NCBI GenBank assembly: GCA_004297165.1
Contig: SCUJ01000005.1
Coordinates: forward strand, 240,947 to 304,946
DNA from: Gammaproteobacteria bacterium
Lineage (GTDB): Bacteria; Pseudomonadota; Gammaproteobacteria; Eutrophobiales; Eutrophobiaceae
Length of the DNA stretch: 64,000 nucleotides
Reading direction: 5' to 3'
Shown here piece by piece: positions 19,434 to 61,852 of this stretch. A model generated the notes under the pieces. The model saw only the letters and a program-made list of their open reading frames with translations, made no database searches and had not been told where the DNA came from. Every line of letters starts with the position of its first letter. Within the stretch, counting starts at the first letter, position 1. The translations under genes and the position numbers were made by a program.

Positions 19434-21905
19434 TCACTCCTCCCGCAATGCCCGCATCGGATCGATGCGCGCGGCGCGGCTCGCGGGGAGCCAGCAGGCA
19501 AGTAACGAGGCGCCGGCTATGCCGCCAAGAGCCAGCGCATAGACCGCGGGATCGGCGGCGGTTACCGCCGGTATCTTAGCGGCCAATAATCGCCCGAGGG
19601 CCATCGCGCCGATACAGCCGAGCAACATACCGGCTGCGAGCAGACGTCCACCCTGCGCGAGCACCAGGCGCACCACATCCGCGCCGTGGGCGCCCAGCGA
19701 CATACGCACGCCCATCTCTCCGGAACGCTGCGTCACAGTCCAGGTCAGCACGCCATAGATGCCTATCACGGCGAGCGTGAAGGCGATCGCTGCGAATGCC
19801 AGCGTCAACGTCATGGGCGTTCGCTGTGGGCCAAGCGAACGCTTTAAGCGCGCGTCCATCGACATCACATCGAATAGCGCCAGGTCCGGGTCGATGCCGG
19901 CGATGACGTTGGCGGCGGCGCGGGTCAGATCGGCCGGGTTGAGGGTGGTGCGCAACGTGAACGCGCCAACGCCGAACTCGCTTTCTTTCCGATAATGCCA
20001 GTAAACCGTTTCCTTGCGCGGGTCCTCGGTCAACGTCTCGTGTTTTATTGCGGGCACGATGCCGACGATCGTGTACCAGATGATGTCTCCCGCGGCGTTC
20101 GCGTCCCCGATGCGCTTACCGAGCGCATCGCCGCCCGGCCAATATTTACCGGCGAGATTCTCGTCGACAATCGCGACCTGCTCCGGTTCATTGACCGTGA
20201 AGTTGCGGCCGCGGATCACCGGGATGTCGAGCGCCGGCAGAAAGCCTTCATTGATGCTGCGTTTTTGCGCATGTGGCGGCGCCGCTCCGGCAGGCGGCGT
20301 ATATCCGTCAATAGAATAACTACCTTGGGAGTTGTTGCCGGAGAATGGCAGCGCCGAGGTGAATCCGGCGTGCATGACGCCGGGCAGCGCGCGCAGTTCA
20401 GTGAGCGCCCGGTCGTAAAACCGTGTCCTTGATTCCGGGTCGGGATAGCGGCTGTCCGGCAACGCGATGCGCGCGGTCCATACCTGTTCGGCGTTGAAAC
20501 CCGCGCCTTCCCGTTGCAACTGCTGGAAACCCCGCGTCAACAGACCCGCTCCGACCAGCAAGGCCACGCTGACCGCGATCTGCACGATCACGAGCGCGCC
20601 GCGAAACGCCCGCGCCCGCGTTCCACCGTCGCCGAGGCGCCCGGCTTCGTGCACGGTCTGTGCGAGATCCGATCGCAGCAGCACAAACAACGGCAGCAGG
20701 CTCGACGCGAGGGCCGCGAACATGGCGGCGCAGACCGTGTAAATGTATACATTACCATCCTGTACGAACTCGATACCCTGACTGGAATTATCGAACCCGA
20801 GAAAGCGGACCAGATCGAGCCCGCCAACGGCAAGCGCAAGTCCCGCGCCGGCGCCAGTAACCGCAAGCAGCAGACTCTCGACCAGCACCAGTCGAATCAG
20901 GCGCCGCGGGTCCGCGCCAAGCGCGAAGCGCGTCGCCAGTTCCTTGCGCCGCGCCAGCATCCGCGCGAGTTGCAGATTGGCGACGTTGGCGCAGGCGATG
21001 ACGAGCACCGCGATCACGATGCCTTGCAGGATGACCATCATCTGCCGGTAGTCCCCGACCATGCGCTCGCGCAGCGGCTGGGCGCGTCCGGTAAAACCCG
21101 TCGTTGCGATGAAGGACTCACCCTGCGGCAACCGTCCGGCCTCGAGGTTCTGCAGTACGATGGAATCGAGCTCCGCCTGCAGCGCGGCAACCGACGCGCC
21201 CGGCCGCAAACGCCCGATGCTGCCCGAATACTCCCGCCCGCGTTCCCTGTCGCTCATCTGCTCCGGGGTGAACGCAAACGGCGTCCAGACATCCATGGAG
21301 CGATCCGGAAACATGAAGCCCTCCGGCATCACGCCGATGATGCGGTAGGGTATGCCATCGAGATCGAGGTCGGCGCCGATCGCATCGTTGCGCGCACCGA
21401 AGCGTTCCCGCCACAGACGCTGGCTCACGACCGCCACTCGATCCTGGCCCGGCTGCATTTCCGCTTCGTTGAATATCCTGCCGAGCAGCGGCGCGCCGCC
21501 GAGTACGCTGAACAGCGATGACGACGCGTTCACGACCTGGATCCTTTCCGGCGCGCCGTTGCCGCCCAGAGTGCGCGGTCTGGCCGTGAAGATTGCTAGA
21601 TCCTCCAGCGAGGGTGCGCGTTCGCGCCGATCGAGATAATCCGGGATCGAGGTCCCGGCGAACATGAGGTTCATCTTGGGATAGACATTGAATACCGCCA
21701 CCAACCGATCGTCATCCGGGTACGGCAGTGGCCGCAGGAACAGGCCATTGAAAACGCTGAATACGGTCGTATTGGCGCCGAGCGCGAACGCGAACACTGC
21801 AATCGTCACCAGCGCGTAACCGGGCCGCTGCGCCAGCGCGCGCATGGAGTAACGGATATCCTGAACCAGATTGCTCAGCATGGCGTGTGTTTTAGTGTCA
21901 TTCAT
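19434..21905 (-). CDS. FtsX/MacB-type ABC permease, ADOP family (copy 1)
   Basis: The 823-residue protein has the ADOP layout, two fused MacB-type permease halves. The N-terminal segment is ALAQRPGYALVTIAVFAFALGANTTVFSVFNGLFLRPLPYPDDDRL. Periplasmic domain 1 carries PFNEAE-like and GIPYRIIGVMP stretches. The FtsX core is [37 protein letters not shown] second periplasmic domain follows, then the C-terminal FtsX core ending [15 protein letters not shown]. No ATPase gene is adjacent, so it must borrow one. Transcription should start at the sigma-54 promoter at 21940-21956, giving a 25-base leader with a GGGAG ribosome site. Confidence 0.88.
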   Translation of the reverse strand: MNDTKTHAMLSNLVQDIRYSMRALAQRPGYALVTIAVFAFALGANTTVFSVFNGLFLRPLPYPDDDRLVAVFNVYPKMNLMFAGTSIPDYLDRRERAPSLEDLAIFTARPRTLGGNGAPERIQVVNASSSLFSVLGGAPLLGRIFNEAEMQPGQDRVAVVSQRLWRERFGARNDAIGADLDLDGIPYRIIGVMPEGFMFPDRSMDVWTPFAFTPEQMSDRERGREYSGSIGRLRPGASVAALQAELDSIVLQNLEAGRLPQGESFIATTGFTGRAQPLRERMVGDYRQMMVILQGIVIAVLVIACANVANLQLARMLARRKELATRFALGADPRRLIRLVLVESLLLAVTGAGAGLALAVGGLDLVRFLGFDNSSQGIEFVQDGNVYIYTVCAAMFAALASSLLPLFVLLRSDLAQTVHEAGRLGDGGTRARAFRGALVIVQIAVSVALLVGAGLLTRGFQQLQREGAGFNAEQVWTARIALPDSRYPDPESRTRFYDRALTELRALPGVMHAGFTSALPFSGNNSQGSYSIDGYTPPAGAAPPHAQKRSINEGFLPALDIPVIRGRNFTVNEPEQVAIVDENLAGKYWPGGDALGKRIGDANAAGDIIWYTIVGIVPAIKHETLTEDPRKETVYWHYRKESEFGVGAFTLRTTLNPADLTRAAANVIAGIDPDLALFDVMSMDARLKRSLGPQRTPMTLTLAFAAIAFTLAVIGIYGVLTWTVTQRSGEMGVRMSLGAHGADVVRLVLAQGGRLLAAGMLLGCIGAMALGRLLAAKIPAVTAADPAVYALALGGIAGASLLACWLPASRAARIDPMRALREE

Positions 21906-22787: not shown

Positions 22788-25196
22788 CTACTTCAGCGCC
22801 TGCAGGATTTCCTCTTCCTGAACCTCCCAAACTTTCTCGTAGGCCGTCCATTCGTTTTCCGCGACTTCGACTTCGGGCACAAGCCGGCGTCCCCTCGATA
22901 AAATGAACCACGCCAGAGGCAACACGCCGCCGAAGATGAACACAACCCCTCCGATAGTACGGAGATAAGTCAGAGTCGCAAATACGGGCCCCGTTACGAA
23001 CTCCTGTGTGCGGGCGTACCAGAACCCGTGCGTGAAAACGGCTGCGATTTGATACACTCCTGCCGGGAACAGATCCAGCGTCATCATCAGCACCAATCCA
23101 CCATTCAGCGACCAAAAGGCGGTTTTGATCAGTTTCTCGTTCCAGTAGGCTCTTTGGAACAGATGCTGGCAGCAAAACAGCATTCCAGCCAGGGCAACGT
23201 TGCCTTTTACCCCAAACATGGCGGCGTGAGCATGATTGCCTGTAAGGTAGGTTCCATGCTCGTAGTAATTGATGATGGGAAGATTGATTAACGAGCCAAA
23301 TACTCCCGCTCCCACAATGTTCCAGAAATTGACGGCGAGAATGAACATCCAGACCCCGTCCATCACGAATTTCTGCTTCCCTTCGTGCAGGTATTCGCTG
23401 GCCCGGACCATTTCCGTTCGCATCCGCCATGCATCCAGGGTGAGCAGGAGCAGAGGCAACACCTGAAGCGTGGAGAAGACGCTTCCAAGCGCAATGATGC
23501 CCGACGGTTTGGCGATCCAGTAGAAATTATGGGAAATTCCGATCAACGCCGTGATCAGAAACATCATCACCGCAAGAAAAATAACCCGTTCCGCCATCGA
23601 GCGGGTGAGAAGGCCCATCTGCACGAGCATGTACCCGATCACACAGGTCGTGAACACCTCAAATGTGACCTCAACCCACATATGGATGTTCATCCAGCGC
23701 CAGTAGTCCGATATGGCAAAATTCTGCGTCGGAGTCATGAACATGCCGAAGAACAGGAACAGGACCATGATGCCGCTGCCGTAAAACAGCCATGCGGGAA
23801 CGGACCATAGGTTCTGCTTTGTGATCCACTGCCTCACGGAGCGGAAGATGATAACGATCCAGAGGACGAATCCGCACAACATGAGGATATGCCAGAATCG
23901 CCCGAGCTCCAGGAACTCCCAGCCTTGACTGCCGAACCAGTACGCAACCTCGTCGCTCAGGCGTCCCGTCTGCCCGAGATAAATGCCAAACAGCGCTCCG
24001 GCGCCCACGATGAAACACACCCAAAATAGCAGGTTGATCAGGAACCGCTGACCGCCCGGGACGTTGGAAAGTCTGGGCAGAAAAAATATGGTGTAACCGA
24101 CCCAGCACATGAAGAACCAGTAGATCTGCAGGATAAGATGCCAGCCTCGAACCACCGTGAAGGGGATGGTAATACCAAACAGATTGACGATGGCGGTGGT
24201 GGGTCCGCCTTTGACGAAATCTTCCGCGCTTAAGACGCCGGCCAGAACCTGCAACAGGAATAGAACGATTGCGAAGGCAAAAAACTTGTAGGTGGAGCTT
24301 TGGGTTGGCCGAACGTGGGCGTCTCCCGAATTCTCAAGGTCCACCGTTGTAAGCGACCAGCCCTTTCCCTTGAACGGATCTGCGGGCAGTGCTTTCATTT
24401 GACCGTACACATACAGGACCAGCATGGTCCCCGCGAGCAGCGCGAGAATTGAAGCAAGACTCCAGAAAATGGTTGCGAAGGTGGGAGTGTTGCCGGCCTC
24501 CGGATCATAGGGCCAGTTGTGAGTATAACTATATGTCTCACCCGGACGATCCGCCGCGGCGACCCAACCTCCCCAGAAGAAATAGGCTGTTAATGCCTCG
24601 ATGTCTTCCGGGTCGGAGATGTGTCCCATCATTCTTCCCGACTGAAAGGCTTCGGGATATTCGGGGTCCGTAAACATCCGGGTGTAATGATTAATCAACT
24701 CCCGGTAAGCGGCAACCTGGGCGTCGTTGATGCGAATGACGGCAGCCTTCTCGTCCCATCCGTTCGTATGGACTTCTCTTGTAACCCTCGCCGCGATCGC
24801 GTCCTTGTCGTATTGAGCCAGATCAGTCTGACGACTCGTCACCTCTTTTCCATAGAAGGACCGCATGGATACAATCGTTCGGTGCAGGGCATCGGCCGTG
24901 AAATCCGGCCCCCGTTCGGCGCCATCGCCCCAAAACGAACCATAAGACATCAAACCCTTGAGATGGAACACCTCCTTGCCCCGCTGGATGCGCCATTCTG
25001 GAATCACTACCTCCCCGGTAGTGGACGACACGAATCCGGTCAGCGGTGGAGATCCGGAATAGGTCCACAGGCCGAGAGCAACTAACCCGATGGTGCTTAT
25101 CCCGGCGACTATCAGGAAGTGTGCCCACCAGTATTTTTTGGCGAGCAGAATGTGCGCAAAGTTTTGATGCTTGCTTTTTGGGAAATCGATTTGCAT
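22788..25196 (-). CDS. nod: qNOR-like haem-copper oxidase with NO-dismutase (NOD) residue pattern
   Basis: The 802-residue membrane protein has the qNOR architecture: an N-terminal TM segment, a cytochrome-c-like periplasmic domain without CxxCH, and about 13 further TM helices. Retained: H505 and E509 in NIHMWVE, H556, and putative haem-ligand His in RGWH and GNHAH. Replaced, by alignment to remembered Geobacillus qNOR numbering with constant offset: H560 (FeB ligand) is N557 in GISHNFYW; E581 is Q578 in FSTLQVLP. Quinol-site H328 and E332 are E325 and K329 in SAEDFVKGG; D746 is G750 in RTIGG. This is the set reported for putative NO dismutases (2 NO to N2 + O2). Start ATG 25196 has AGAGGG five bases upstream; a TTG at 25256 is the alternative. 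No norC or nir gene is adjacent. Confidence 0.85.
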   Translation of the reverse strand: MQIDFPKSKHQNFAHILLAKKYWWAHFLIVAGISTIGLVALGLWTYSGSPPLTGFVSSTTGEVVIPEWRIQRGKEVFHLKGLMSYGSFWGDGAERGPDFTADALHRTIVSMRSFYGKEVTSRQTDLAQYDKDAIAARVTREVHTNGWDEKAAVIRINDAQVAAYRELINHYTRMFTDPEYPEAFQSGRMMGHISDPEDIEALTAYFFWGGWVAAADRPGETYSYTHNWPYDPEAGNTPTFATIFWSLASILALLAGTMLVLYVYGQMKALPADPFKGKGWSLTTVDLENSGDAHVRPTQSSTYKFFAFAIVLFLLQVLAGVLSAEDFVKGGPTTAIVNLFGITIPFTVVRGWHLILQIYWFFMCWVGYTIFFLPRLSNVPGGQRFLINLLFWVCFIVGAGALFGIYLGQTGRLSDEVAYWFGSQGWEFLELGRFWHILMLCGFVLWIVIIFRSVRQWITKQNLWSVPAWLFYGSGIMVLFLFFGMFMTPTQNFAISDYWRWMNIHMWVEVTFEVFTTCVIGYMLVQMGLLTRSMAERVIFLAVMMFLITALIGISHNFYWIAKPSGIIALGSVFSTLQVLPLLLLTLDAWRMRTEMVRASEYLHEGKQKFVMDGVWMFILAVNFWNIVGAGVFGSLINLPIINYYEHGTYLTGNHAHAAMFGVKGNVALAGMLFCCQHLFQRAYWNEKLIKTAFWSLNGGLVLMMTLDLFPAGVYQIAAVFTHGFWYARTQEFVTGPVFATLTYLRTIGGVVFIFGGVLPLAWFILSRGRRLVPEVEVAENEWTAYEKVWEVQEEEILQALK

Positions 25197-25283
25197 TTTC
25201 GCCCTCTGGGTCGCCGCTTGCATGTCTGATTGAATATTTGAGAAAGGGGCGGACAATAACCCATGGGTTTACTGCCATCAAAT

Positions 25284-28679: not shown

Positions 28680-31139
28680 TTATTCATACCTCAGCGCCTC
28701 CATCGGTGCGATGCGCGATGCGCGCCGCGCCGGGCGCCAGGCCGCGCCGAATATCACTATGGACAACAGCGCGGCGGCCGCGGTAAAGATGAACGGAGTT
28801 TGGCCGGCAATGCCAAACAGCAGGGACTCGGCGACGCGGCCGAGGCCGATGGCGACGGCGAGTCCAAGCCCGATGCCGATCGCGGTCATCGCCGCGACCT
28901 GTCGCAACACCAGTTTCTGTAGAGTTTCCGGTCGGGCGCCAAGGGCGAGCCGCAGGCCCAACTCGCGCGTGCGCTGCGCAACGTTGCAAGTCAGGACACC
29001 GTAGAGTCCGATCGCCGTCAACAACGCCGCGAGCCCGGCAAAACCCACCGAGAGCGTCGTGACCAGGCGATCGATGAAGATGTTCTCCTGCGCCTGGCGC
29101 CGCAGGGTGATGACATTGCTGACCGGGAGTTCTGGATCGACGCCCGCGACGATGCGCGGGATGACCGGCGGCAAGGCATCCGGGTCCACTCCCGTGCGAA
29201 TGTAAAACGTCATGGTTCCACTGAACATCGGCAGCGCGCCGCGCGGCAAGAAGATCTGCGGAGGAGCCGATTCCTTGACGGAGCTGTAGGCCGCATCCGC
29301 GACAACCCCGACAATTTCCCAACCATCGCCGCCCGCCGGACCGAATCGGAGTCGGCGTCCGATCGCCTTATCGCCCAGACCGTACTCCCGCACGAACCGC
29401 TCATTGACGATCAGTTTGCCGGAGGGCTGGGCCATGTCTGCGGCATTAAATTCGCGTCCGGCGCGCAGCGGTATCGCCAGCGTTGAGAAAAACCCAGGCC
29501 CAATCGTATTGAAATTCGCGGTGATGGGTTGGTCCGCATTCTCGTAGCCGTCGATCCCCAGACCAACTTCCATTGCATTACCGGTGATCACCGGCAGCAT
29601 GGCGGAGGTCACGGCCGTAACGCCGGGGTAGGCGATAAACGCCTGCGCGATCCTGTCGTAGAGCGCCTCGGTTTCTCCGGTCTCGTATCCGCTCAGGCGC
29701 GGCGCAATGCTGAAACTCGCCATCCCGTCGATGCCGATACCGAGATCGAGGCGGGCAATATTCGTCAGGCTGCGCGAGAACAATCCCGCCAGCGCGAGCA
29801 GGATCATCGCGAAGGCGATTTGCGCCGTGGCTAGCGCGACGCGCAGCCGCATCGCGCCATGTCCGCCCTGGCTGTGCGCGGCTTGCCCTTTCATCGCCAG
29901 CGCCGGACTCATGCGCGCCATGCGCCAGGCCGGCAACAGCCCGAACAGCAACGTGGTCGCCAGCGTCAAGCCGGCGGCAAACGCCATTGCAGTGGTTCCG
30001 ATTTGCAACGCGAGCCCGCCGGCAAGCCGCGCCGGCAGCATCGGCGCGATGGCGCCGAGCGTCAGTATCGCCACCGGCAGGCTCAAAAGGCCTCCCAGCA
30101 GGGCCGGCAAGACGGTCTCGGTCAGGAGTTGCGCCAGCAGTCGGCCACGGCTCGCGCCCATGGACTCACGCACCGCCAGCTCCACCCCGCGCGCCAACAG
30201 CAGGTTGGCGATGTTTACACAAACAATGAGCAATACGAGCAGCGTTACGCCGAGCAGAATTCGCAGCGATTGGGATGCGCCTACGATATTCCCCTGGCCA
30301 TGCGCGCCGTTAACGAGTTCGACCGCCTGTCGTTCGAACTGCTGCTGTTGATCGGCGGGCGCCGTTGGCTGCGGCAACTCGAACTCGTTCAGGATGCGGC
30401 GGAACTGGGTATTGATGCCCACGGTCGCCTCCGCCGCCGAGATCCCCGGGGCGAGACGCGCGAACATCCTTACCCAGATCATATTTCTGTTTTCAGCCAT
30501 GCCCCGGGGCTGGTTTGGGTTTAACCGCCAGATCATCGTAAACGGCACGAAGATTTCCGAGCGAACGCCGAGCTGCGTTCCGGCGAACCCCGGCGGCGCG
30601 ACGCCGATAATCGTAAAGACCTCGCCGTTGATCGTCAGTGTCTCCCCGACGATCTCGGGATCGCCGCCAAGGCGGTTTTGCCAGAAGGCGTGGCTCAACA
30701 CGATAACCGGTGACTCATCGATGCGCGGTTCATCCCGCGGGTCGATCAGACGGCCAAGTACAGGTGTCAGTCCAAGCGCTTTGAAATAGTGCCCGCTTGC
30801 AAATATGCCGGAAACCGTGATCGCCCTGCCCCGATGCACCAGGTTCATCTGCAACTCGCTGAACGCCGCGATGCCGTCAAAGACCGTCTGCCCTTTTTCC
30901 AGATCGCGAAACATCGGGTAACTGAACGCCTCGCGTCCGCGCGCGTCCGCCGGTCCCGCGCGCACGATGTTGACTAGGCGATCCGGCTCGGGCGTGGGCA
31001 GCGGCTGCACCAGCACCTGGTAAAACACCGCGAAGATCGCCGTCGTCGCGCCGATGCCCAGCGCGAGCATCAGGACGATGCACAAGGACAACCCCGGATG
31101 CTGGGTAAACTGGCGCATGGCATGGCGCAGGTTATTCAT
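28680..31139 (-). CDS. ADOP-family ABC permease (copy 2)
   Basis: The 819-residue permease has the duplicated MacB/FtsX layout. Its N-terminal part is [41 protein letters not shown]. The first FtsX core is LLVLLIVCVNIANLLLARGVELAVRESMGASRGRLL. A second periplasmic domain contains ADAAYSSVKE-like stretches, and the tail is ARRASRIAPMEALRYE. The ...EALRYE ending groups it with the copy at 46690 rather than with the ...ALREE copies. It overlaps the upstream ATPase gene by 4 bp, giving a complete permease-ATPase unit driven by the sigma-54 promoter at 31897-31913. Confidence 0.88.
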   Translation of the reverse strand: MNNLRHAMRQFTQHPGLSLCIVLMLALGIGATTAIFAVFYQVLVQPLPTPEPDRLVNIVRAGPADARGREAFSYPMFRDLEKGQTVFDGIAAFSELQMNLVHRGRAITVSGIFASGHYFKALGLTPVLGRLIDPRDEPRIDESPVIVLSHAFWQNRLGGDPEIVGETLTINGEVFTIIGVAPPGFAGTQLGVRSEIFVPFTMIWRLNPNQPRGMAENRNMIWVRMFARLAPGISAAEATVGINTQFRRILNEFELPQPTAPADQQQQFERQAVELVNGAHGQGNIVGASQSLRILLGVTLLVLLIVCVNIANLLLARGVELAVRESMGASRGRLLAQLLTETVLPALLGGLLSLPVAILTLGAIAPMLPARLAGGLALQIGTTAMAFAAGLTLATTLLFGLLPAWRMARMSPALAMKGQAAHSQGGHGAMRLRVALATAQIAFAMILLALAGLFSRSLTNIARLDLGIGIDGMASFSIAPRLSGYETGETEALYDRIAQAFIAYPGVTAVTSAMLPVITGNAMEVGLGIDGYENADQPITANFNTIGPGFFSTLAIPLRAGREFNAADMAQPSGKLIVNERFVREYGLGDKAIGRRLRFGPAGGDGWEIVGVVADAAYSSVKESAPPQIFLPRGALPMFSGTMTFYIRTGVDPDALPPVIPRIVAGVDPELPVSNVITLRRQAQENIFIDRLVTTLSVGFAGLAALLTAIGLYGVLTCNVAQRTRELGLRLALGARPETLQKLVLRQVAAMTAIGIGLGLAVAIGLGRVAESLLFGIAGQTPFIFTAAAALLSIVIFGAAWRPARRASRIAPMEALRYE

Positions 31140-44210: not shown

Positions 44211-46667
44211 CTATTCCTCCCGCAGCGCCCGCATCGGATCAATACTCGCGGCGCGGCGCGCAGGAAGGTAACTTGCGAGAAGCGCCGCCAGCGCCAAAAA
44301 CGCGGCCGCCATTGCAAAGGATGCGGCATCGACTGGGGTGACGCCGAACAGCAGCGACGACAGGAGACGCGTCACGCCGGCGGCGACCCCCGCGCCTAGG
44401 ATAATCCCGAGGCCCGAGAGCAGCATCCCGCGAAAGACGAACATCCTTTTGACCTTGCGGGGCGCGGCGCCCAGCGCGATCCGGATGCCGACCTCGCGCC
44501 GGCGCTGCATCACGGCATAGGCGAGCACGCCGTAAATGCCGACGATGCTGAGCGAGAGCGCCATCGCCCCGGCGATCCCGAGCAGGACCAGCGCGAAGTT
44601 CGTTCGCCCCAGCGAGATCTCGTACATCGCCGCCACGGTGTTTACCGAGACGAGCGGCAGGTTCGGATCCACGGCGGCGATCGCCTGGCGCAGTTCGGCG
44701 ACAAATGTCTCCGTGCCGGTGCGATCGCTGCGCAACACGAAGGCGACCGAGGTCGGCGTGGCGGGCCCGATCATCTCGTGCTGGCGCGCCGGCGAGTAGA
44801 CGATCGCGGGCGCCGGCTGATCCGCGCCGTTGTCATGGACATCCGCGACCACGCCGATCACCTCCTGCCAGTCGCCGGTTGTTCCGAGCTTGATGCGCTT
44901 GCCAACCGCGCCCGCGACCGTGTTCCAGGTCTCCCGGGCGAAGGTCTCCGACACCAGCGCGACATTCCGTTCGTCGTAGAGCTCCGGCCAATCGACGTCG
45001 CGCCCCGCGATGAGCGGCGTTTCCAGCGTGCGGAAGTACCCGGGTGAAATCATCTTGACCGTGCGGGATGGAGGCAGCTCGCCAGTCGCGTAGGTCTTGT
45101 CCTCAGCAGCCACGATCACGTTCGCCCCGCGGTCCATCGGCAGCGAATCGACATAGGCCGCCGCCGCGACGCCAGGGACTGCCTTGAGCCGCTCAAGAAT
45201 TTGCTCCTGCATCCGCACCAGCCTGTCCGGCGCCGCGGTCACTGCCGCAGGCAGGAGGGGTCGCACCGTCTGGAGCGTCTCCGGGTGGGCGAATCCGGGA
45301 TCGACCGCGCGCAGATTCTGAAAGGTGCGGATCAACAGACCCGAGCAGACGAGCAACACCAGCGCAAGCGCCATCTGGGCCACGACCAACGCATCCTGCG
45401 ATCGGTTCCGGCTCTTGCCGGCGCTCGCCCAGCGCGTGCCTTCGCGGATGAACGCGGCCAGACGCGATCCCGATTTCGATCCGGCGACTTTCAGGATCGG
45501 GAAGAGTCCGAACAGCAACCCGGAGGCGATCGATATCATCAGAGTAAACAGCAGAACCGCGGGGTCGATGGCGATCTCGCCAAGCCGCGGCAGGTACGTC
45601 GGCCCATACGCCGTCAACAACCGCAGGCCGCCGTACGCGAGACCGAGTCCCACGAGTCCGCCGAGCCCGCTGAGCGTCAGGCTCTCCGCCAGCAGGGCGC
45701 GCGCGATGTGTCCGCGTCCGGCGCCGAGCGCCACGCGGATCGCGAGCTCCTGGCCACGGCCCTCGGCCCGCACCAGCAATAGATTCGCGACGTTCGCGCA
45801 GGCGGTCAACAACACGATGCCGATGCCGCCGAGCAGCACCCACAGCATGCGGCCGATGTCGCCCACCACGTCCTGCTTGAGCGGCCGTACGGCGGGCTCG
45901 AGGTGGAGGGCATCCATGCGATGCCCCGCATAGCGCTCCAGAAACACCGGCAGCATGCGGCCGATGTCGGCATTGGCCTCGGCCACAGCGATGCCCGGCT
46001 TGAGCCGGCCGATCGCGCTGTAGCGCCAATCCGCGGCCGGCTGCGCGAGATCGAGTCGCGCCGGCACGATCACGTCGATGGGGGCGCCGAAGTGCGTGAA
46101 TCCCGCGGGCATCACGGCTATGACCGTACGCGGCCTGCCATCGAGTATCACCGTGCGCCCGATCACGCCCGGATCGGAACCGAAACGGCGTTGCCAGTAA
46201 CGGTCGCTCAGTATTGCGGTCTCCGCCGCGCCGGGTTGATCGTCGGCGGGCGAGAACCACCGGCCCAGCGCCGGTTGCACGCCCAATGCCTGCAACGCGC
46301 CGTGCGTGACCTCCAGCGCCGTCGCCACCTCCGGCGTTTCGATCCCGGTGACGGTCAGGCTGGCGAAGCGCCACAACCCGAGTTCTTCGAATGTACGATT
46401 GTCCGCACCATATACCGCGAACATCTGCGGCGAGAACACGAAATTGTCGCCGCGCACATTGCCCATCACGGCCGAGTGCGTCACCGTCATCACCCGATCC
46501 GCATCCGGATACGGCAGCGGTTTGATCACGATGCCATTGACCACGCTGAACATGGCCGTCGTCGCGCCGATGCCGAGCGCAAGCGTCAGCACGACCGTGA
46601 GCGTAAAGCCGGGCGAGCGGATGAACATCCGGAACGCGAGGCGCAGGTAATCCACCAAGGCTGACAT
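44211..46667 (-). CDS. ADOP-family ABC permease (array member 3)
   Basis: The 818-residue permease begins [59 protein letters not shown]. The first FtsX core is [39 protein letters not shown], and it ends [16 protein letters not shown]. The N-terminus ([12 protein letters not shown]) differs from the MIDxxLRxLRYA start of the next three members, while the 3' junction is the conserved 10-bp type. The gap to the previous gene is 22 bp. Confidence 0.88.
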
Positions 46668-46689
46668 GCATCATTCCTCTCTGGGTTGT

Positions 46690-49215
46690 TTACTCGTAAC
46701 GCAACGCTTCCATCGGCATGACCGCCGCTGCCTTGCGCGCCGGCAGCCAGCTCCCGCCCAGCATGAACACCACGAGCGCAAGCACGGCCATGGTCAACAC
46801 GATGGGGTCATAAGCGGTCAGGCCGAACAACAGCGACTGGGCGACCCGGCCGAGCGCGAGCGCGGCGACGAGGCCGATGGCGCCGCCGATTGCCGTCAGA
46901 CGCGCGACCTGGATGAGCACGAGCTTGCGCAGCGCCGCGGGTTTCGCGCCGAGCGCGAGACGCAGCCCGAACTCGCGCTTGCGGCTCACGACGTTGAACG
47001 CGAGCACGGCGTAGAGGCCGATCGCCGCCAGCACGGTCGCGAGCCCCGCGAACGTTGCGGACAACAGCGACAGGAAACCGTCCTGCGCCGTATAGGTGTC
47101 GATGTGGCGGCGCAAAGTCGTCACGGCGCTCACCGGGACGTTCGGATCGATGCGCTCAATCGCCTCCGGGATCATGGCGGCGAGCGAGTCGGCGTCGATC
47201 GAGCCGCGTACATAGAAGAATAAGCCTGGAAACTGTGCGTCGAACGGCGGTCGCGGCGTGAAGACCTGCGGTCGCGCCGCATCCTTGATGTCCGCGTACT
47301 TCGCGTCGGCGACCACGCCGATGATCTCGACGGGACCTTGCGGCATGAACGGGCCGTCGAGCCGAAGCACGGCGCCAACGGCGCCGGCGCCGAGATCGAA
47401 CTTGCGCACGAAGCTCTCGTTGACGATCACGACCGCCGGTTCCGGGATGCTGTCGGCATCAGTAAAGTCGCGACCCGCGCGCAGCGGAATGGACACCGTC
47501 CTGAAGAAACCTGGGCTGGCCATCGGATTGGTTTGCGTGATGTTGTCCCCGGCCGTACCCTCCTTGCCGGCCACCGTGACATCGGCGCCTGATGCCATGC
47601 CGTACAGCATCGGGAACGCCACGTACGCGACCGAGGCGATGCCGGGTTGGGCGGCCAGCTCTTCGCGCGTCCGCTTGAGAAATGTATCGAGGCGCTCGCC
47701 CGAGTAACCCGCCAGCAGCGGCGCCACATTGAACGCGACCAGCGAGTCCACATCCATCCCGTAATCGATGTGCGCGACGTTGACCATGCTTTTCGTAAAC
47801 AGTCCCGAGAGGGCGAGCAGCACGAGCGACAGCGCGATCTGCACAACCACCAGGCCATCGCGCAGGCGCGTCAGACCGCGTCCGCCGGGCGACTGCGCGG
47901 ATTGTTCCTTGATCACGCCGCCGGGATTGGCGCGACCGGCCGAGAGGGCGGGCGCGAGGCCGAACAGCAGCACCGTGGCGAGCGTAATCGCCGCCGCAAA
48001 CAGCAGCACCGGCGGGCTCAACTCGACGGCGAATTGCCGGGCGATGTCATCGGGCACCAGCGCGGCGATCGAGCGCAGCGTGGCGCTGGCGACCGGCAGG
48101 CTCGACAGACCGCCGGCGGCGGCAAGCACAACCGATTCGGTGAGCAGTTGCGTCAGCAGCCGCCAGCGGCTTGCCCCGATCGAAGCGCGAATCGCCATCT
48201 CCCCGGAACGCGCCGCGCCGCGCGCAAGCAACAGGTTCGCGACGTTGACGCACGCGATGAGCAGCACGAGCCCGGTCGCGCCGAGCGCGAGTGTCAGCGG
48301 ATCCGTCAGGCGGACCTCCACGTACTCCTGCCCGCGCGCGCCGGGGTCAAGCACGACGCTGCCCTCCAGAAACTGCGCGCGCTGCTGCGCGGAAAGGCCC
48401 AGGAGGTTCGGCGCCTCCACGTCCCGCAGGACCCCGCGATAGAAGGCATTGATCTCGGACTCCGCCGCCGCCATCGATACGCCGGGTTTGAGCCGTGCGA
48501 ACAGCGTGACCCAATAGGCCTGGCGATCCTCGTCGTTGCGCGGCTCCTCGGGCTGCATCAGCCAGCGCAGCGTGAGCGGCACGAATACCTGCGGTCCCCA
48601 GCCGCGCATCGTGCCGGAGAAGCCCTCCGGCGCAACGCCAATGATCGTCAACGGCTGGTTGTTGACCGTGAGCGTCTGGCCGATCACGCCCGGATCGCCG
48701 CCGTACTGGTTCTGCCAGTAGCGGTAACCCAGAACGACCACCCGCGATTCGCCGACGCCCGGCGCATCCTCGGGATCGATCAGACGACCGAGCACCGGCC
48801 GCAGTCGCAACGTGCTGAAATAGTTGCCGGATACGAGCACGGCGTCGTGCAGCGTGGTCTGTTCGCCGGATTTGAGATTCGCGGGAAAGGCGTAATGCGC
48901 CGCGATCCCGGTGAACACGTTCTGCGCAACCTCGAGATCGCGATACATCGGAAAGCTGAACTGCAGATCGCCGCTGCCGACGGCGAGATCGCCCCGGGTG
49001 CTGCCCGGCTTCAAGCCCGGAGACCGCAGACTCACCAGCTCATCGGGCGCCGGCACGGCGACCTCCGCGAGGATCGTCTGATGGATGAGCGAATACATGG
49101 CCGTCACCCCGCCGATGCCGAGCGCGAGCGTCACGATCACGGTGAGGCTGAACGCGGGGTGCATACGCAGCGTGCGCAGGGCGTAGCTGAAATTACGCAA
49201 TAATTCGTCTATCAC
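46690..49215 (-). CDS. ADOP-family ABC permease (array member 2)
   Basis: The 841-residue protein is the longest of the array: MIDELLRNFSYALRTLRMHPAFSLTVIVTLALGIGGVTAMYSLIHQTILAEVAVPAPDEL, core GLVLLIACVNVANLLLARGAARSGEMAIRASIGASRWRL, tail ARKAAAVMPMEALRYE. Its ending and the LLARG core group it with copy 2 (28680) instead of its neighbours. A distinctive loop follows the first periplasmic domain (NLLGLSAQQRAQFLEGSVVLDPGARGQEYVEV). The array therefore mixes at least two subfamilies. Confidence 0.88.
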   Translation of the reverse strand: MIDELLRNFSYALRTLRMHPAFSLTVIVTLALGIGGVTAMYSLIHQTILAEVAVPAPDELVSLRSPGLKPGSTRGDLAVGSGDLQFSFPMYRDLEVAQNVFTGIAAHYAFPANLKSGEQTTLHDAVLVSGNYFSTLRLRPVLGRLIDPEDAPGVGESRVVVLGYRYWQNQYGGDPGVIGQTLTVNNQPLTIIGVAPEGFSGTMRGWGPQVFVPLTLRWLMQPEEPRNDEDRQAYWVTLFARLKPGVSMAAAESEINAFYRGVLRDVEAPNLLGLSAQQRAQFLEGSVVLDPGARGQEYVEVRLTDPLTLALGATGLVLLIACVNVANLLLARGAARSGEMAIRASIGASRWRLLTQLLTESVVLAAAGGLSSLPVASATLRSIAALVPDDIARQFAVELSPPVLLFAAAITLATVLLFGLAPALSAGRANPGGVIKEQSAQSPGGRGLTRLRDGLVVVQIALSLVLLALSGLFTKSMVNVAHIDYGMDVDSLVAFNVAPLLAGYSGERLDTFLKRTREELAAQPGIASVAYVAFPMLYGMASGADVTVAGKEGTAGDNITQTNPMASPGFFRTVSIPLRAGRDFTDADSIPEPAVVIVNESFVRKFDLGAGAVGAVLRLDGPFMPQGPVEIIGVVADAKYADIKDAARPQVFTPRPPFDAQFPGLFFYVRGSIDADSLAAMIPEAIERIDPNVPVSAVTTLRRHIDTYTAQDGFLSLLSATFAGLATVLAAIGLYAVLAFNVVSRKREFGLRLALGAKPAALRKLVLIQVARLTAIGGAIGLVAALALGRVAQSLLFGLTAYDPIVLTMAVLALVVFMLGGSWLPARKAAAVMPMEALRYE

Positions 49216-49284
49216 GGCAGTCGTCCTCCACTTCCAGAAAACTTCACCGGGTCGCCCTCACTCGCATCAGGCAATCTTGACCCG

Positions 49285-51693
49285 TCAGTCCCGCCGCAGC
49301 GCGGTGACCGGATCGACCTGCCCGGCGCGCAGCGCGGGCACGAGCGATGCCCCCGCGCACGCCGCGATGACCAGGAGCAGGCTGGCGCCGTAGGCAAGCG
49401 GATCGAACAGGCGCACCGTCTGTCCGATCAGCTCCGCCGCCGGCGTCGCGAGCAGCAGTGCGCCGAGCGCCGCCGCCAGGCCGCCGCCGAGCAGCAGGCC
49501 AATGCCGACGGGGCGAATCGACTGCGCCAGCGCGAGCGCGCTGATGCGATAGCGCGTCGCGCCGAGCGCGATCCGCACGCCGATCTCGCGGGTGCGTTGC
49601 GCGACGAGATACGTGAGCACGCTGAACAATCCGGACAACGTCAGCACGAGCGCCAGAGCCCCGAGCGCCAGCGTCAGCCAGAACGGTATCTCGAGCAGCG
49701 TCGCTTCCATGCGCGCGAGCTCCTGCAGCGGAACGATTTCGCCGATGGCCGGATCGATCGTCGCCAGCCGCTCGCGAAGTCCGCGGACCACGATCGCGGG
49801 ATCGCCGCGCACCCGCAGCGCCAGCGACGTGCCGGCGGTCTCGGTGGTGGCCTGCAGATAAACGTCCGGTCCCGCCAGCAAGGTTGCGCCGCCAACCCGA
49901 AAACCCGCCACGTCCCGCGCGACGCCAATGACGACGGCGGCGCCGGTAAACCGCGGCATCTGCGCAGGCGCAACGGGCGCTCCTTCCGCCTCGTTCGGGT
50001 CTGGTTCGAGCCGCAGTTCCTGCCCGAGCGGATCGCGCCCCGGCCACAGTGCCTGGGCCATGCGTTCCGACACAACCGCGACCGGCGCGCCTCGCTCATC
50101 CGGCGTGAACAGGCGCCCGCGCATGACCGCGACGCCGAGGATGTCGAAGTACTCCGGCGACACCCACCGGTAGGTGGCGGCGCTCTTGCCCGCCGCCGTT
50201 CCGGCGAGCGCGCGCAGCGCGGCTGGCGACATCGCCGCCAGCGCGGCGACCTCCGGATCAGCGCGGACGGCATCGAGTATCGAGTCGCGCGCCTGCTCGT
50301 TGCCGATCCCGAGAAAGACGGTGTCGGCGATGCGTACTCCGGGGTCGTTTGACGCCGCCCGCCAACTGCTGCGCAGAAAAATCGCGGCGCAGATGAGGAG
50401 CAGCACCGAACCCGTCACCTGCAGCGCGATCAGCATGTTGCGGGCGCGGCCGGGCCGGACGTCGTGCGTCACCGCGCCGTGCATCGCCTGCGCCAGCTCC
50501 ACGCGCGTCGCCCGCAACGCCGGTACGAGGGCGAAGCACAGCGTCGAGGCGATCGCGGCGGCGACCAGAAACAGCACGACGCGCCAATCCGCCGGCATCA
50601 GCGCGAGGCGGATGTCGCCCAAGCCGGTCATCGCCGACGTGACATAGTTAACGACCGAGGCGAGGACCAGCCGCGATACGCCAAAGCCGAACGCGGCGGC
50701 TGCAAGCGCCAACACCAGGCTCTCGGTGAGCAACTGCCGCACGATGCGCCGCCGCGACGCGCCGATCGCGAACCGGATGCCGATCTCGCGCTGGCGGGCG
50801 ACTCCGCGCGCGAACAACAGGTTGGCGACGTTCGCGCAACCGATCAACAAAATGAGTCCGAAGGCGAAGAACAGCGGCAGAAACGTCAGCATAGTGTCGA
50901 CCGACAGCGGGACCTTCCCCTGCCGCGGCTCAATCACGAGGCTCGCGGCGGGGCGTGCGCCTGTAGTCTCGGCCGATCGCCGCAGGTCCCATGCGTCGAG
51001 TCGCGCCAGCGCTTCGCCATGCGACATGCCGGGGCGCAGTCGCCCGACGATATCGACCGGCAGGGCGCCGTCGGCGCCGCGACCAAGGTCACCGGCGAGC
51101 GCGAGCGGCATCCAGAAGTCCGGCGGGTCGATGCCGAGGCCGCGAAAACCTGCCGGCATCACGCCGAGCACATCGAAGGTCATCTCGTTGACCCGGACCG
51201 TCCGCCCGATGATGCCCGGATCGCCCGCGAAATAGCGCTGCCACGCCCGCTGACCGAGCACGAGGACGCGGTTGCCGGCGAGATCGTCCGCCGCGGTGAA
51301 CGTGCGTCCGAGCGCCGCGCTCACCCCGAGCACCTGGAAGAAGTTGCCGGTCACGAGCGGGCCTTCCATGCGCTGGCCGTCGATCCAGCGATCGATCTGG
51401 GGTCCCAGCGCAATGGCATCGGTAAATATTTCGGTCTCGCGGAGCAAGGCGTCGTATGCGTCCTGCGTGAACGGCTCGGCCTCTGCGGTCGCCGTGGGCT
51501 GGCGGCGCACCGCGAACAGCTCGTGGGGATCCCTTACCTCATCCGCGCGGAAGATGTAGGCATTGAAGATCGTGAACACCGCGGCCACGAGTCCAAGACC
51601 AAGTCCCAGGGTCAGAATCACCGTGCAGGCAACGCCCGGGGTCTGTGCCAGGGTGCGGACCGCATAGCGAAGGTCGTATAGCAGCTTATCCAT
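49285..51693 (-). CDS. ADOP-family ABC permease (array member 1)
   Basis: The 802-residue permease is the first after the ATPase gene, with a 9-bp gap. It starts MDKLLYDLRYAVRTLAQTPGVACTVILTLGLGLGLVAAVFTIFNAYIFRADEVRDP. Its core is [41 protein letters not shown] and its tail is VPALRAGQVDPVTALRRD. It lacks the PLPYP-D motif after the first helix that most copies share and is the most divergent member. A 69-bp gap follows before the next gene, the largest gap between permeases of the array. Confidence 0.87.
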   Translation of the reverse strand: MDKLLYDLRYAVRTLAQTPGVACTVILTLGLGLGLVAAVFTIFNAYIFRADEVRDPHELFAVRRQPTATAEAEPFTQDAYDALLRETEIFTDAIALGPQIDRWIDGQRMEGPLVTGNFFQVLGVSAALGRTFTAADDLAGNRVLVLGQRAWQRYFAGDPGIIGRTVRVNEMTFDVLGVMPAGFRGLGIDPPDFWMPLALAGDLGRGADGALPVDIVGRLRPGMSHGEALARLDAWDLRRSAETTGARPAASLVIEPRQGKVPLSVDTMLTFLPLFFAFGLILLIGCANVANLLFARGVARQREIGIRFAIGASRRRIVRQLLTESLVLALAAAAFGFGVSRLVLASVVNYVTSAMTGLGDIRLALMPADWRVVLFLVAAAIASTLCFALVPALRATRVELAQAMHGAVTHDVRPGRARNMLIALQVTGSVLLLICAAIFLRSSWRAASNDPGVRIADTVFLGIGNEQARDSILDAVRADPEVAALAAMSPAALRALAGTAAGKSAATYRWVSPEYFDILGVAVMRGRLFTPDERGAPVAVVSERMAQALWPGRDPLGQELRLEPDPNEAEGAPVAPAQMPRFTGAAVVIGVARDVAGFRVGGATLLAGPDVYLQATTETAGTSLALRVRGDPAIVVRGLRERLATIDPAIGEIVPLQELARMEATLLEIPFWLTLALGALALVLTLSGLFSVLTYLVAQRTREIGVRIALGATRYRISALALAQSIRPVGIGLLLGGGLAAALGALLLATPAAELIGQTVRLFDPLAYGASLLLVIAACAGASLVPALRAGQVDPVTALRRD

Positions 51694-55056: not shown

Positions 55057-57888
<2,832 letters not shown>

Positions 57889-57995
57889 AGTACGAACCGT
57901 CTCATCTTCTGTTTCGCCGAACCCGGCGGAACCTGTTAATATAAAATCTCCCGGCAGCGCAAAGCAAAGAATATTCACTTTTTGGAGGAGCAATC

Positions 57996-59677: not shown

Positions 59678-61852
59678 TTAGCGGTGTGTTTCCGGCGGCG
59701 GGGCGGCTGCTCCCTGTCCGGCAGGCGCCGGCGCCACAGGTGGCGCGGTCCCCGCAGGGGGTGCGGGCGGTGGCCCGCCAAAGGGAGATTGCGGTTGCGG
59801 ATTGTTCTTCGCCTCGTTCGCCAGTGTGACGACATAGGCGCGGATCGCCTCCGCGTCTTCCGGCGTCAGTGACTCGCGAAACGACACCATACCGTTGTCG
59901 GTTAGCGCTCCGTCGATCACGATGACCTTGAACAACTCGGGTTCGCCCAGGGCCGTGGCGTAGCGCAGGTCCGGGAACAGACTGCTCACGCGTCCGCTGT
60001 TGCCGTGGCAACTGGCGCAATGCGCGTTGTAATGCGTCTCGCCGCGGGCCAACAACGCGGCGTCGCCGAAGTTCGCCGGCGGATTGAGCGCCGGCGGGGT
60101 ATAACTCACGCGCTCGGGCAGGGTGGCTTTCCCCCCCAGTTTGTACACCAGCAGGCGCGCGTAGTTCGGGGCCCAGTAACTGGCCGGTCCGAAGCCGCCG
60201 CCCTGCCCGGCCACCACGGCGATATATTGCGCGCCATCGATCGAGTAACTCGCCGCGCTGCCGACAATGCCGGCCTGCGTTGGCGTGGACCATACCTGCT
60301 CGCCCGTATCGGCCCGGAAGGCGGCGAAGGTTTGTTGTTGCGCGCCCTGGAACACGAGGTTGCCGGCCGTCGTCAGGACACCGGCGCGGGCGCTGCCCTG
60401 CGGTTGCTGCCAGACTGCCTTTTTATTCACCGGATCCCATGCCAGCAGATAGGAACCCGAGCCCTCAAGTTTGGGCGCCGGGTCCTGGGGACGTTTGCCG
60501 ACATTTATCGAGAGCAACTGGTTGCCCATCTTCGCGCCGGCCTCGGCCACCAGCGGGAAACTGCTGTAGTTGGTCGGGATGTACATCAGGCCCGTGTCCG
60601 GACTGAACGCCATCGGATGCCAACTGTGCGCGCCGCCCGCCGATGGCACGACATGAAAGCCTTTGTCGCCGAACGCGCCATAATTCGCCGCCGGATCCAG
60701 GATCGGTCGGAAGTTTTCATCGAAGCCGGTCATCCAGTTTGCCGTCGGCACGAACAGATCGGCGGACAGCACCTTGCCAGTGGCGGCCTCGAGCACGTAG
60801 AACACGCCGTTCTTGGGCGCCTGCATTAATACGTGTTTCTTCTCGCCGTTGATGACGAGATCGGCGGTAATGATCGACTGCGTATTATCGAAATCGAAGC
60901 TGTCGGCTGGCGTCGCCTGATAGTGCCAGCGGTACTTGCCGGTCTTCGCATCCAGGGCGACGATCGATGCCGTAAACAGATTGTCGCCGCCGCCCGGCGA
61001 GCGGATCTCCGCCGGCCAGGGCGCGCCATTGCCGGTGCCGACATAGACCAGGTTAGTGACCGGGTCATAGGTGATCGCATCCCAAGGCGCGCCGCCGCCG
61101 CCGGTCTTCCACCATTCGCCGTTCCAGGTCTTTGCCGCCGATTCGAGCTCCGGCTGTTCGAAACCCAGGGCGGGATTACCGGGCACGACCCACCAGCGCC
61201 ACAGTTCCTTGCCGTTGTCGGCGTCATAGGCGGCCATGTAACCGCGTTGATGAAACTCGGAACCCGCCTCGCCGATGAAGATGCGGCCATCGGCGATGCG
61301 CGGCGCGCCGGTGATGGAAAGCCAAAGCTCGCGATCGGTGACCTGGACCTCCCAGACCTTCTCGCCGGTCTTCGCCTTGACGGCGATCAGGCGCCCGTCG
61401 AGCGTGCCCCAGATCACCATGTCCTTCCACGCCGCAACCCCGCGGTTCACGATCCCGCAGCAGAGTTTCACGGCCCATTCGCCGGGCACCTTGGGGTCAT
61501 ATTTCCAGAGTTGTTGGCCGGTCTTCGCGTCGAAGGCGTAGACCTTGCTCCAAGGGGAGGTGACGAAGATGCGGCCATCGACGACGACCGGGGTTGTCTC
61601 GTAAGAGCCGCCGCGTTCGGCGAGATCGCCGTACCACGCCAGGCCAAGCTGGCCGATATTGTCTGCGGTGATCTCTTTGAGCGGGCTGTAGCGTTGCTCG
61701 CTGTAGTCGCGGCCGTATGCCATCCACTGACCGGCGTTCTCTTCGGAATCAGCCGCCTTGATTCGGGCCGTATCGACCTCGGCAAACCCGGGGGTTATAC
61801 CGGCAACCACCAGCGTGATAATGGATAAAATGGAAGGTTTCAGGCTGTGCAT
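59678..61852 (-). CDS. PQQ-dependent alcohol dehydrogenase with fused cytochrome c (quinohaemoprotein)
   Basis: The 724-residue periplasmic enzyme has a signal peptide (SILSIITLVVAGITPGFAE). Residues about 35-580 form an eight-bladed PQQ propeller. It contains the vicinal-Cys disulphide motif KLCCGIVNRG, W-motif repeats such as AFDAKTGQQLWKYD and AWDPVNKKAVWQQ, and the active-site region GGGAPWDAITYDP...GGGDNLFTAS. A C-terminal cytochrome c domain (CASCH, later Met in NGMVSF) and a Pro/Ala-rich tail follow. The residue two after the likely catalytic Asp (GGGDNL) is Leu, which argues against the lanthanide type. It oxidises alcohols and passes electrons to its haem. No PQQ synthesis genes are near. 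Confidence 0.9.
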   Translation of the reverse strand: MHSLKPSILSIITLVVAGITPGFAEVDTARIKAADSEENAGQWMAYGRDYSEQRYSPLKEITADNIGQLGLAWYGDLAERGGSYETTPVVVDGRIFVTSPWSKVYAFDAKTGQQLWKYDPKVPGEWAVKLCCGIVNRGVAAWKDMVIWGTLDGRLIAVKAKTGEKVWEVQVTDRELWLSITGAPRIADGRIFIGEAGSEFHQRGYMAAYDADNGKELWRWWVVPGNPALGFEQPELESAAKTWNGEWWKTGGGGAPWDAITYDPVTNLVYVGTGNGAPWPAEIRSPGGGDNLFTASIVALDAKTGKYRWHYQATPADSFDFDNTQSIITADLVINGEKKHVLMQAPKNGVFYVLEAATGKVLSADLFVPTANWMTGFDENFRPILDPAANYGAFGDKGFHVVPSAGGAHSWHPMAFSPDTGLMYIPTNYSSFPLVAEAGAKMGNQLLSINVGKRPQDPAPKLEGSGSYLLAWDPVNKKAVWQQPQGSARAGVLTTAGNLVFQGAQQQTFAAFRADTGEQVWSTPTQAGIVGSAASYSIDGAQYIAVVAGQGGGFGPASYWAPNYARLLVYKLGGKATLPERVSYTPPALNPPANFGDAALLARGETHYNAHCASCHGNSGRVSSLFPDLRYATALGEPELFKVIVIDGALTDNGMVSFRESLTPEDAEAIRAYVVTLANEAKNNPQPQSPFGGPPPAPPAGTAPPVAPAPAGQGAAAPPPETHR

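What the first reader, a model, noticed from the sequence alone, without database searches (positions are those of the whole stretch)
22788..25196. Putative nitric oxide dismutase in a gammaproteobacterial genome
The qNOR-like protein keeps H505, E509 and H556 but has Asn for the FeB-ligand His (N557, codon 23526-23528) and Gln for the catalytic-site Glu (Q578, codon 23463-23465). It has Glu and Lys where the quinol-site His and Glu sit (E325, K329), and Gly for the quinol-site Asp in the R-x-P-G-D motif (G750). One offset fits the first six positions against remembered Geobacillus qNOR numbering; D746 is placed by its motif and needs a small gap. The substitutions match those reported for the putative NOD enzymes of Methylomirabilis and the alkane-degrading strain HdN1. 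If right, the organism may make O2 from NO and run oxygen-dependent steps anaerobically.
Basis: partly seen in the sequence, partly recalled or inferred. Interest (0 to 1): 0.95.

Follow-up and report, generated by a model that had tools for sequence, protein, structure and literature searches.

The report
Nitric oxide dismutase in gammaproteobacterial denitrifier
This gene encodes an intact member of the nitric oxide dismutase family in a likely gammaproteobacterium that also has nitrate- and nitrite-reduction genes; the enzyme is predicted to split nitric oxide into nitrogen and oxygen, which would likely let the cell respire oxygen it makes itself, and it is a new member of a kind already known rather than a new kind.

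Summary
The 802-aa ORF at 22788-25196(-) keeps H505, E509 and H556 but has N557, Q578, E325, K329 and G750 where qNORs have His, Glu, His, Glu/Asp and Asp. Asn, Gln and Gly stand together in 115 of 119 listed homologs and in 0 of 8 canonical qNORs. The protein is 73% identical to Candidatus Methylomirabilis NODs and sits in a supported NOD clade apart from qNORs. UvrA on the same contig points to Gammaproteobacteria. Yet it groups with Methylomirabilota, Acidobacteriota and Myxococcota NODs, and joining it to the main gammaproteobacterial NOD clade is rejected, which suggests horizontal transfer. The genome has narGHI with a narJ-like gene, nirS, cNorB, and aa3-like and ba3-like oxidases. Searches found no NirK, convincing NosZ, AlkB-type desaturase, P450 or pMMO. 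Best reading: 2 NO -> N2 + O2, with the O2 respired rather than used on hydrocarbons. Dismutation is untested here, and the passages I read give no purified-enzyme proof. New member of a known kind.

The parts
22788..25196 (-). nod-like gene (qNOR paralog), 802 aa, single intact ORF
23526..23528 (-). codon of N557, Asn in place of the FeB-ligand His (3AYF H560)
23463..23465 (-). codon of Q578, Gln in place of the catalytic-site Glu (3AYF E581)
24222..24224 (-). codon of E325, in place of the quinol-site His (3AYF H328)
24210..24212 (-). codon of K329, in place of the quinol-site Glu (3AYF E332)
22947..22949 (-). codon of G750, in place of the quinol-site Asp (3AYF D746)
23682..23684 (-). codon of H505, retained FeB ligand (3AYF H508)
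23529..23531 (-). codon of H556, retained FeB ligand (3AYF H559)
25202..25207 (-). AGAGGG, likely ribosome-binding site 5 nt before the ATG
   Evidence: read
25268..25281 (-). TTGATGGCAGTAAA, FNR/DNR-like box with 1 mismatch (consensus recalled), 72-85 bp before the ATG; the only intergenic one of 6 such sites in the window; weak evidence
55057..57993 (-). uvrA, used as the host marker on the same contig

Best explanation
The gene encodes a nitric oxide dismutase-family protein that is predicted to convert two NO into N2 and O2 without outside electrons, and the O2 is likely respired by the cell's own aa3-like and ba3-like oxidases. Shown: sequence, diagnostic residues, clade, predicted-model fold match, and the accompanying nar, nirS, cNorB and oxidase genes. 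Inferred: NarGHI and NirS supply NO under anoxia. NO binds at the heme b3 / non-heme metal site, where one His ligand is Asn and the catalytic Glu is Gln. With no quinol site or usual proton relay, the enzyme couples two NO instead of reducing them. The product O2 goes to terminal oxidases, sparing N2O, for which no convincing NosZ was found. The gene likely reached this lineage by horizontal transfer.
For: Residues. Identity 73% to Candidatus Methylomirabilis NODs: P0020, P0022; L005; P0019 (73%) is named norZ of a 'Candidatus Methylo...' record, the name cut off. Clade. Fold. Transfer: of 24 sampled same-genus or same-family genomes 1 has a full-length match, only 43% identical; AU test rejects joining it to the main gammaproteobacterial NOD clade (263 log-likelihood units, p 1.7e-50; group named after the trees were seen); gene GC 54.2% against 62.1% for the window. 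Context: narGHI and narJ-like, nirS, norC-like and cNorB, CtaD-like (660 bits, cut-off 670.75), ba3-like oxidase. NosZ model: only a 23-bit hit beside the ba3-like oxidase. FNR-like box.
Against: No activity data. Ettwig 2012 itself calls dismutation speculation pending purification (PMC3413370, section 7). Foraminifera with nod-like nor sequences made N2O (Woehle 2018 as told in PMC6636425, passage). The genome also has a cNOR, so NO can go to N2O. nod stands alone, on another contig than the nir-nor cluster. The FNR-like box is imperfect, and 25 of 29 related loci lack one at 1 mismatch or fewer. The NosZ search had no control over the cut-off.
Confidence: 0.58

Rival explanations
1. It is a modified NO reductase that still makes N2O, taking electrons from a donor other than quinol.
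For: Fold and most metal ligands of qNOR are kept. Foraminifera with nod-like sequences made N2O (PMC6636425 passage).
Against: The three quinol-site residues read and the catalytic Glu are replaced, and the Gln is kept in 119 of 119 listed homologs and 120 of 120 of the second clade. The genome already has a cNOR.
Confidence: 0.22
2. It is a dismutase, but the O2 serves oxygenases (hydrocarbon or other) rather than respiration.
For: This is the role proposed for M. oxyfera and HdN1 (PMC3413370 passages). Rieske dioxygenases and flavin monooxygenases were not searched.
Against: No FA_desaturase, P450 or pMMO match in a 98.95% complete genome; PF02332 not found, no control.
Confidence: 0.1
3. 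It is an NO scavenger or sensor, or an inactive relic of a transferred gene.
For: Stands alone; transfer-like placement with different GC.
Against: Intact ORF without stops, with the NOD-typical metal-site residues kept.
Confidence: 0.08
4. It is an ordinary quinol-dependent NO reductase.
For: 28-32% identity in structure-based alignments and the same predicted fold as solved qNORs.
Against: Outside the qNOR clade (SH-aLRT 100); lacks the FeB His, the Glu and the quinol site.
Confidence: 0.02

Closest known systems
Candidatus Methylomirabilis putative NODs (L005, P0019, P0020, P0022)
   Same: 73% identity; Asn, Gln, Gly and Glu(328) at the diagnostic sites. M. oxyfera too lacks identifiable enzymes for N2 formation (PMC3413370 abstract)
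   Different: Gly instead of Lys at 332; Methylomirabilis species sequenced have two nod genes (PMC6636425 passage) and pMMO (G040), here one nod and no pMMO found
Other gammaproteobacterial NODs (L015, L017-L019, L021; same-class L064, L065)
   Same: Asn/Gln/Gly set
   Different: Only 61-65% identical; other sub-clades of the tree; Thr, Trp or Met at 328 instead of Glu
Second NOD-like clade (P0241-P0360; includes Algoriphagus and Ferruginibacter proteins)
   Same: Asn 120/120, Gln 120/120, Gly 119/120
   Different: 41-46% identical (20 rows); 107 of 120 keep the quinol-site His328
Canonical qNOR (3AYF, Geobacillus)
   Same: Fold, FeB ligands H508/H559, E512, H651, H653
   Different: H560, E581, H328, E332, D746 all replaced here

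Membership tests
Putative NO dismutase (NOD) | Asn for one FeB-ligand His | tested here: met
   N557; 118 of 119 listed homologs
Putative NO dismutase (NOD) | Gln for the catalytic-site Glu | tested here: met
   Q578; 119 of 119
Putative NO dismutase (NOD) | Quinol-binding residues replaced | tested here: met
   E325, K329, G750
Putative NO dismutase (NOD) | All other metal-ligand His kept | tested here: met
   H505, H556, H655, H657; H353 invariant in A2 (numbering +1)
Putative NO dismutase (NOD) | Clade with Methylomirabilis NODs, apart from qNORs | tested here: met
   SH-aLRT 100 in both quick trees
Putative NO dismutase (NOD) | NO converted to N2 + O2 | not testable with these tools
   needs labelled-gas assay
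Quinol-dependent NO reductase (qNOR) | FeB His triad, catalytic Glu and quinol-site His/Glu/Asp | tested here: not met
   N557, Q578, E325, K329, G750; 8 of 8 qNORs have the canonical residues
Quinol-dependent NO reductase (qNOR) | Overall qNOR fold | tested here: met
Intra-aerobic hydrocarbon or methane oxidiser | pMMO, AlkB or P450 in the genome | tested here: not met
   PF02461 0 (Methylomirabilis genome G040 rings), PF00487 0, PF00067 0
Intra-aerobic hydrocarbon or methane oxidiser | sMMO-type hydroxylase | tested here: inconclusive
   PF02332 0 matches, but no control rang
Oxygenic denitrifier | NO-forming nitrite reductase present, NosZ absent | tested here: inconclusive
   NirS found; NosZ not found but no control over cut-off

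The most novel reading that the evidence does not exclude
A gammaproteobacterium has taken up a Methylomirabilis-type NOD and uses it for respiration alone: nitrate to nitrite to NO, NO to N2 + O2, and the O2 burned by a high-affinity ba3-like oxidase. It would be an anaerobe that breathes its own oxygen with no hydrocarbon to attack, choosing per NO between N2O (cNOR) and N2 + O2 (NOD).
Probability: 0.35. Interest if true: 0.75.

Novelty: new member of a known kind. Interest (0 to 1): 0.5.

Why it matters
If the enzyme works as predicted, nitrate respiration in this organism releases N2 and usable O2 instead of N2O. It separates two ideas usually tied together: NOD as an O2 source for monooxygenases, and NOD as a respiratory branch. 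This genome has the second set of partners (nirS, cNorB, aa3-like and ba3-like oxidases) and, as far as searched, not the first, so it makes the respiratory role testable.

Tried and rejected
Canonical qNOR: rejected by residues and tree. Hydrocarbon role: four families searched, none found. NirK not found. NsrR control of nod: I compared the regulator-norC gap and the nod upstream by eye and saw no shared motif. FNR box: the window site has 1 mismatch; 4 of 29 related loci have a site with at most 1 mismatch in 200 bp upstream against 0.5 expected from simple base shuffles; 3 loci were dropped for short upstream DNA; norC upstream has only a 2-mismatch site and nirS upstream none. NCBIfam gave no family for the NOD protein. 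The sigma-70 scan gave no nod promoter. A paper search for purified or heterologous NOD showed no such work among the 20 listed of 28; listing only.

A first AU test (p 1.77e-6) held the window with seven gammaproteobacterial or same-class NODs that are themselves not one clade on that tree (L064 and L065 stand apart), so it could be rejected for their sake. I repeated it with the clade of L015, L017, L018, L019, L021 and the unnamed P0093 (263 log-likelihood units, p 1.7e-50). Both groups were named after a tree was seen, and the trees are 'quick' with SH-aLRT only.

Rows dropped: the trees used 46 and 49 of the rows in hand; long qNOR branches were flagged. L025, L028 and L029 are cut off before the FeB site and are the 3 misses of the 25 of 28 count. 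Exceptions among the 119: P0013 (Thr at the FeB position), P0078, P0088 and P0103 (Ala, Ile, Thr for Gly at 746).

Full report
Observation. The ORF at 22788-25196 on the minus strand is intact, 802 aa, and carries the qNOR domain pair. Against the PDB its best sequence match is Geobacillus qNOR 3AYF (organism from PMC3413370). Aligned on 3AYF, the window has E325/H328, K329/E332, H505/H508, E509/E512, H556/H559, N557/H560, Q578/E581, H655/H651, H657/H653 and G750/D746.

More than chance. In the 119 other homologs listed (the best 120 of 1149 hits, itself included), Asn stands at 560 in 118, Gln at 581 in 119, Gly at 746 in 116 and the kept ligands in 119; Asn, Gln and Gly stand together in 115. 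The 8 canonical qNORs (3AYF, five plasmid-borne, two from class relatives) have His, Glu and Asp. Among 28 loci of named genomes, 25 show Asn, Gln and Gly and 3 are cut off before those sites.

Host. uvrA, 30 kb from nod in the window, has 12 listed hits with an organism name, 10 of them 'Gammaproteobacteria bacterium'. The genome G000 has 3.53 Mb, 13 contigs, 98.95% completeness and 0 contamination. In a sample of 369 genomes of the class, 28 listed genomes have a match above 300 bits. Residues were read in full for 20 of them, 5 with Asn/Gln/Gly (the window's, G119, G127, G144, G019) and 15 with His/Glu/Asp; one was partial and seven unread.

Transfer. Of 24 sampled genomes of the same genus or family, only G019 has a full-length match, at 43% identity and with Asn/Gln/Gly. 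The one same-genus genome is only 76% complete. The window NOD does not join the main gammaproteobacterial NOD clade: holding it there costs 263 log-likelihood units, p-AU 1.7e-50 (group named after the tree was seen). Its GC is 54.2% against 62.1% for the window, and GC3 0.68 against 0.77 (SD 0.068, 34 simple ORF picks); membrane proteins can differ for other reasons. Horizontal transfer is the likely but inferred reading.

Metabolic setting. Four heme-copper proteins were found: NOD, cNorB, CtaD-like (660 bits, cut-off 670.75) and a ba3-like oxidase. A norC-like cytochrome and norB lie with an Rrf2 regulator, a VWA protein and nirS. narG, narH and narI pass NCBIfam cut-offs and narJ is below its cut-off; a perfect FNR-like box lies about 1.2 kb before narG with a gene between. 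NirK was not found. The NosZ model gave only a 23-bit hit next to the ba3-like oxidase, with no control over the cut-off. FA_desaturase and P450 were not found with ringing controls; PF02461 was not found while the Methylomirabilis genome rings; PF02332 was not found without a control. Rieske and flavin oxygenases were not searched.

Regulation. A one-mismatch FNR/DNR-like box (consensus recalled) lies 72-85 bp before the nod ATG and is the only one of six such sites in the window that is intergenic. Related loci: 4 of 29 have a site with at most one mismatch against 0.5 expected. This is weak support for anaerobic control.

Mechanism. Committed reading: NarGHI and NirS make NO; NOD couples two NO to N2 and O2; aa3-like and ba3-like oxidases use the O2. 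The residue changes explain why quinol-driven reduction would fail (Ettwig 2012, PMC3413370 section 7). That paper calls dismutation speculation. Nod-like nor sequences occur in foraminifera that made N2O (PMC6636425 passage). High O2 affinity of ba3-type oxidases is general knowledge, not tested.

What is known. NODs are reported from Methylomirabilis, HdN1 and Muricauda (PMC3413370 passages), Sediminibacterium and Algoriphagus (PMC10264387 passages), ODZ MAGs (PMC10359470 passages), and Gammaproteobacteria among others (PMC12285268 passages). Sequence clusters with other residues at 328 and 332 than the NC10 NODs are reported in PMC6250046 (passages). So this is a new member of a known kind. 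What it adds is a Methylomirabilis-type NOD in a gammaproteobacterial nirS/cNorB genome without the usual monooxygenases, as far as searched.

Noticed in passing
L031 / L062:9334-11676 (G019, same family as the host) and P0241-P0360: A second NOD-like clade has Asn (120/120), Gln (120/120) and Gly for Asp746 (119/120) but keeps quinol-site His328 in 107 of 120. Loss of His328 therefore does not define all Asn/Gln proteins; PMC10286720 (passage) mentions qNor-related clusters between nod and qNor.
   Followed up: partly
L059:15179-17401 (G000:C13): NirS of 740 aa: residues 203-740 match cd1 nitrite reductase, and an extra N-terminal cytochrome c domain (about 74-183) matches residues 348-457 of copper nitrite reductases of 468 aa; a lipoprotein-like signal precedes it (by eye).
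   Followed up: partly
L062:12427-13185 and upstream of L031: In G019 a PhyH dioxygenase-family gene lies two ORFs upstream of the NOD-like gene on the same strand, and a perfect FNR-like box (TTGATGTAAATCAA) starts 76 bp before its start.
   Followed up: no
L081:4817: Perfect FNR-like box TTGATATTTATCAA about 1.2 kb before narG, with a cytochrome-like gene between.
   Followed up: no
window 28680-31139, 44211-51693, 19434-21905: At least five large permease ORFs that look like MacB/FtsX-type exporters by eye (not scanned), with ABC ATPase-like ORFs nearby.
   Followed up: no
window 59678-61852: PQQ-dependent dehydrogenase with a C-terminal cytochrome c domain (Pfam PQQ and Cytochrome_CBB3).
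   Followed up: no
P0013: The single homolog of 119 with Thr instead of Asn at the FeB position; the rest of the pattern is kept. May be a sequencing error or a variant.
   Followed up: no
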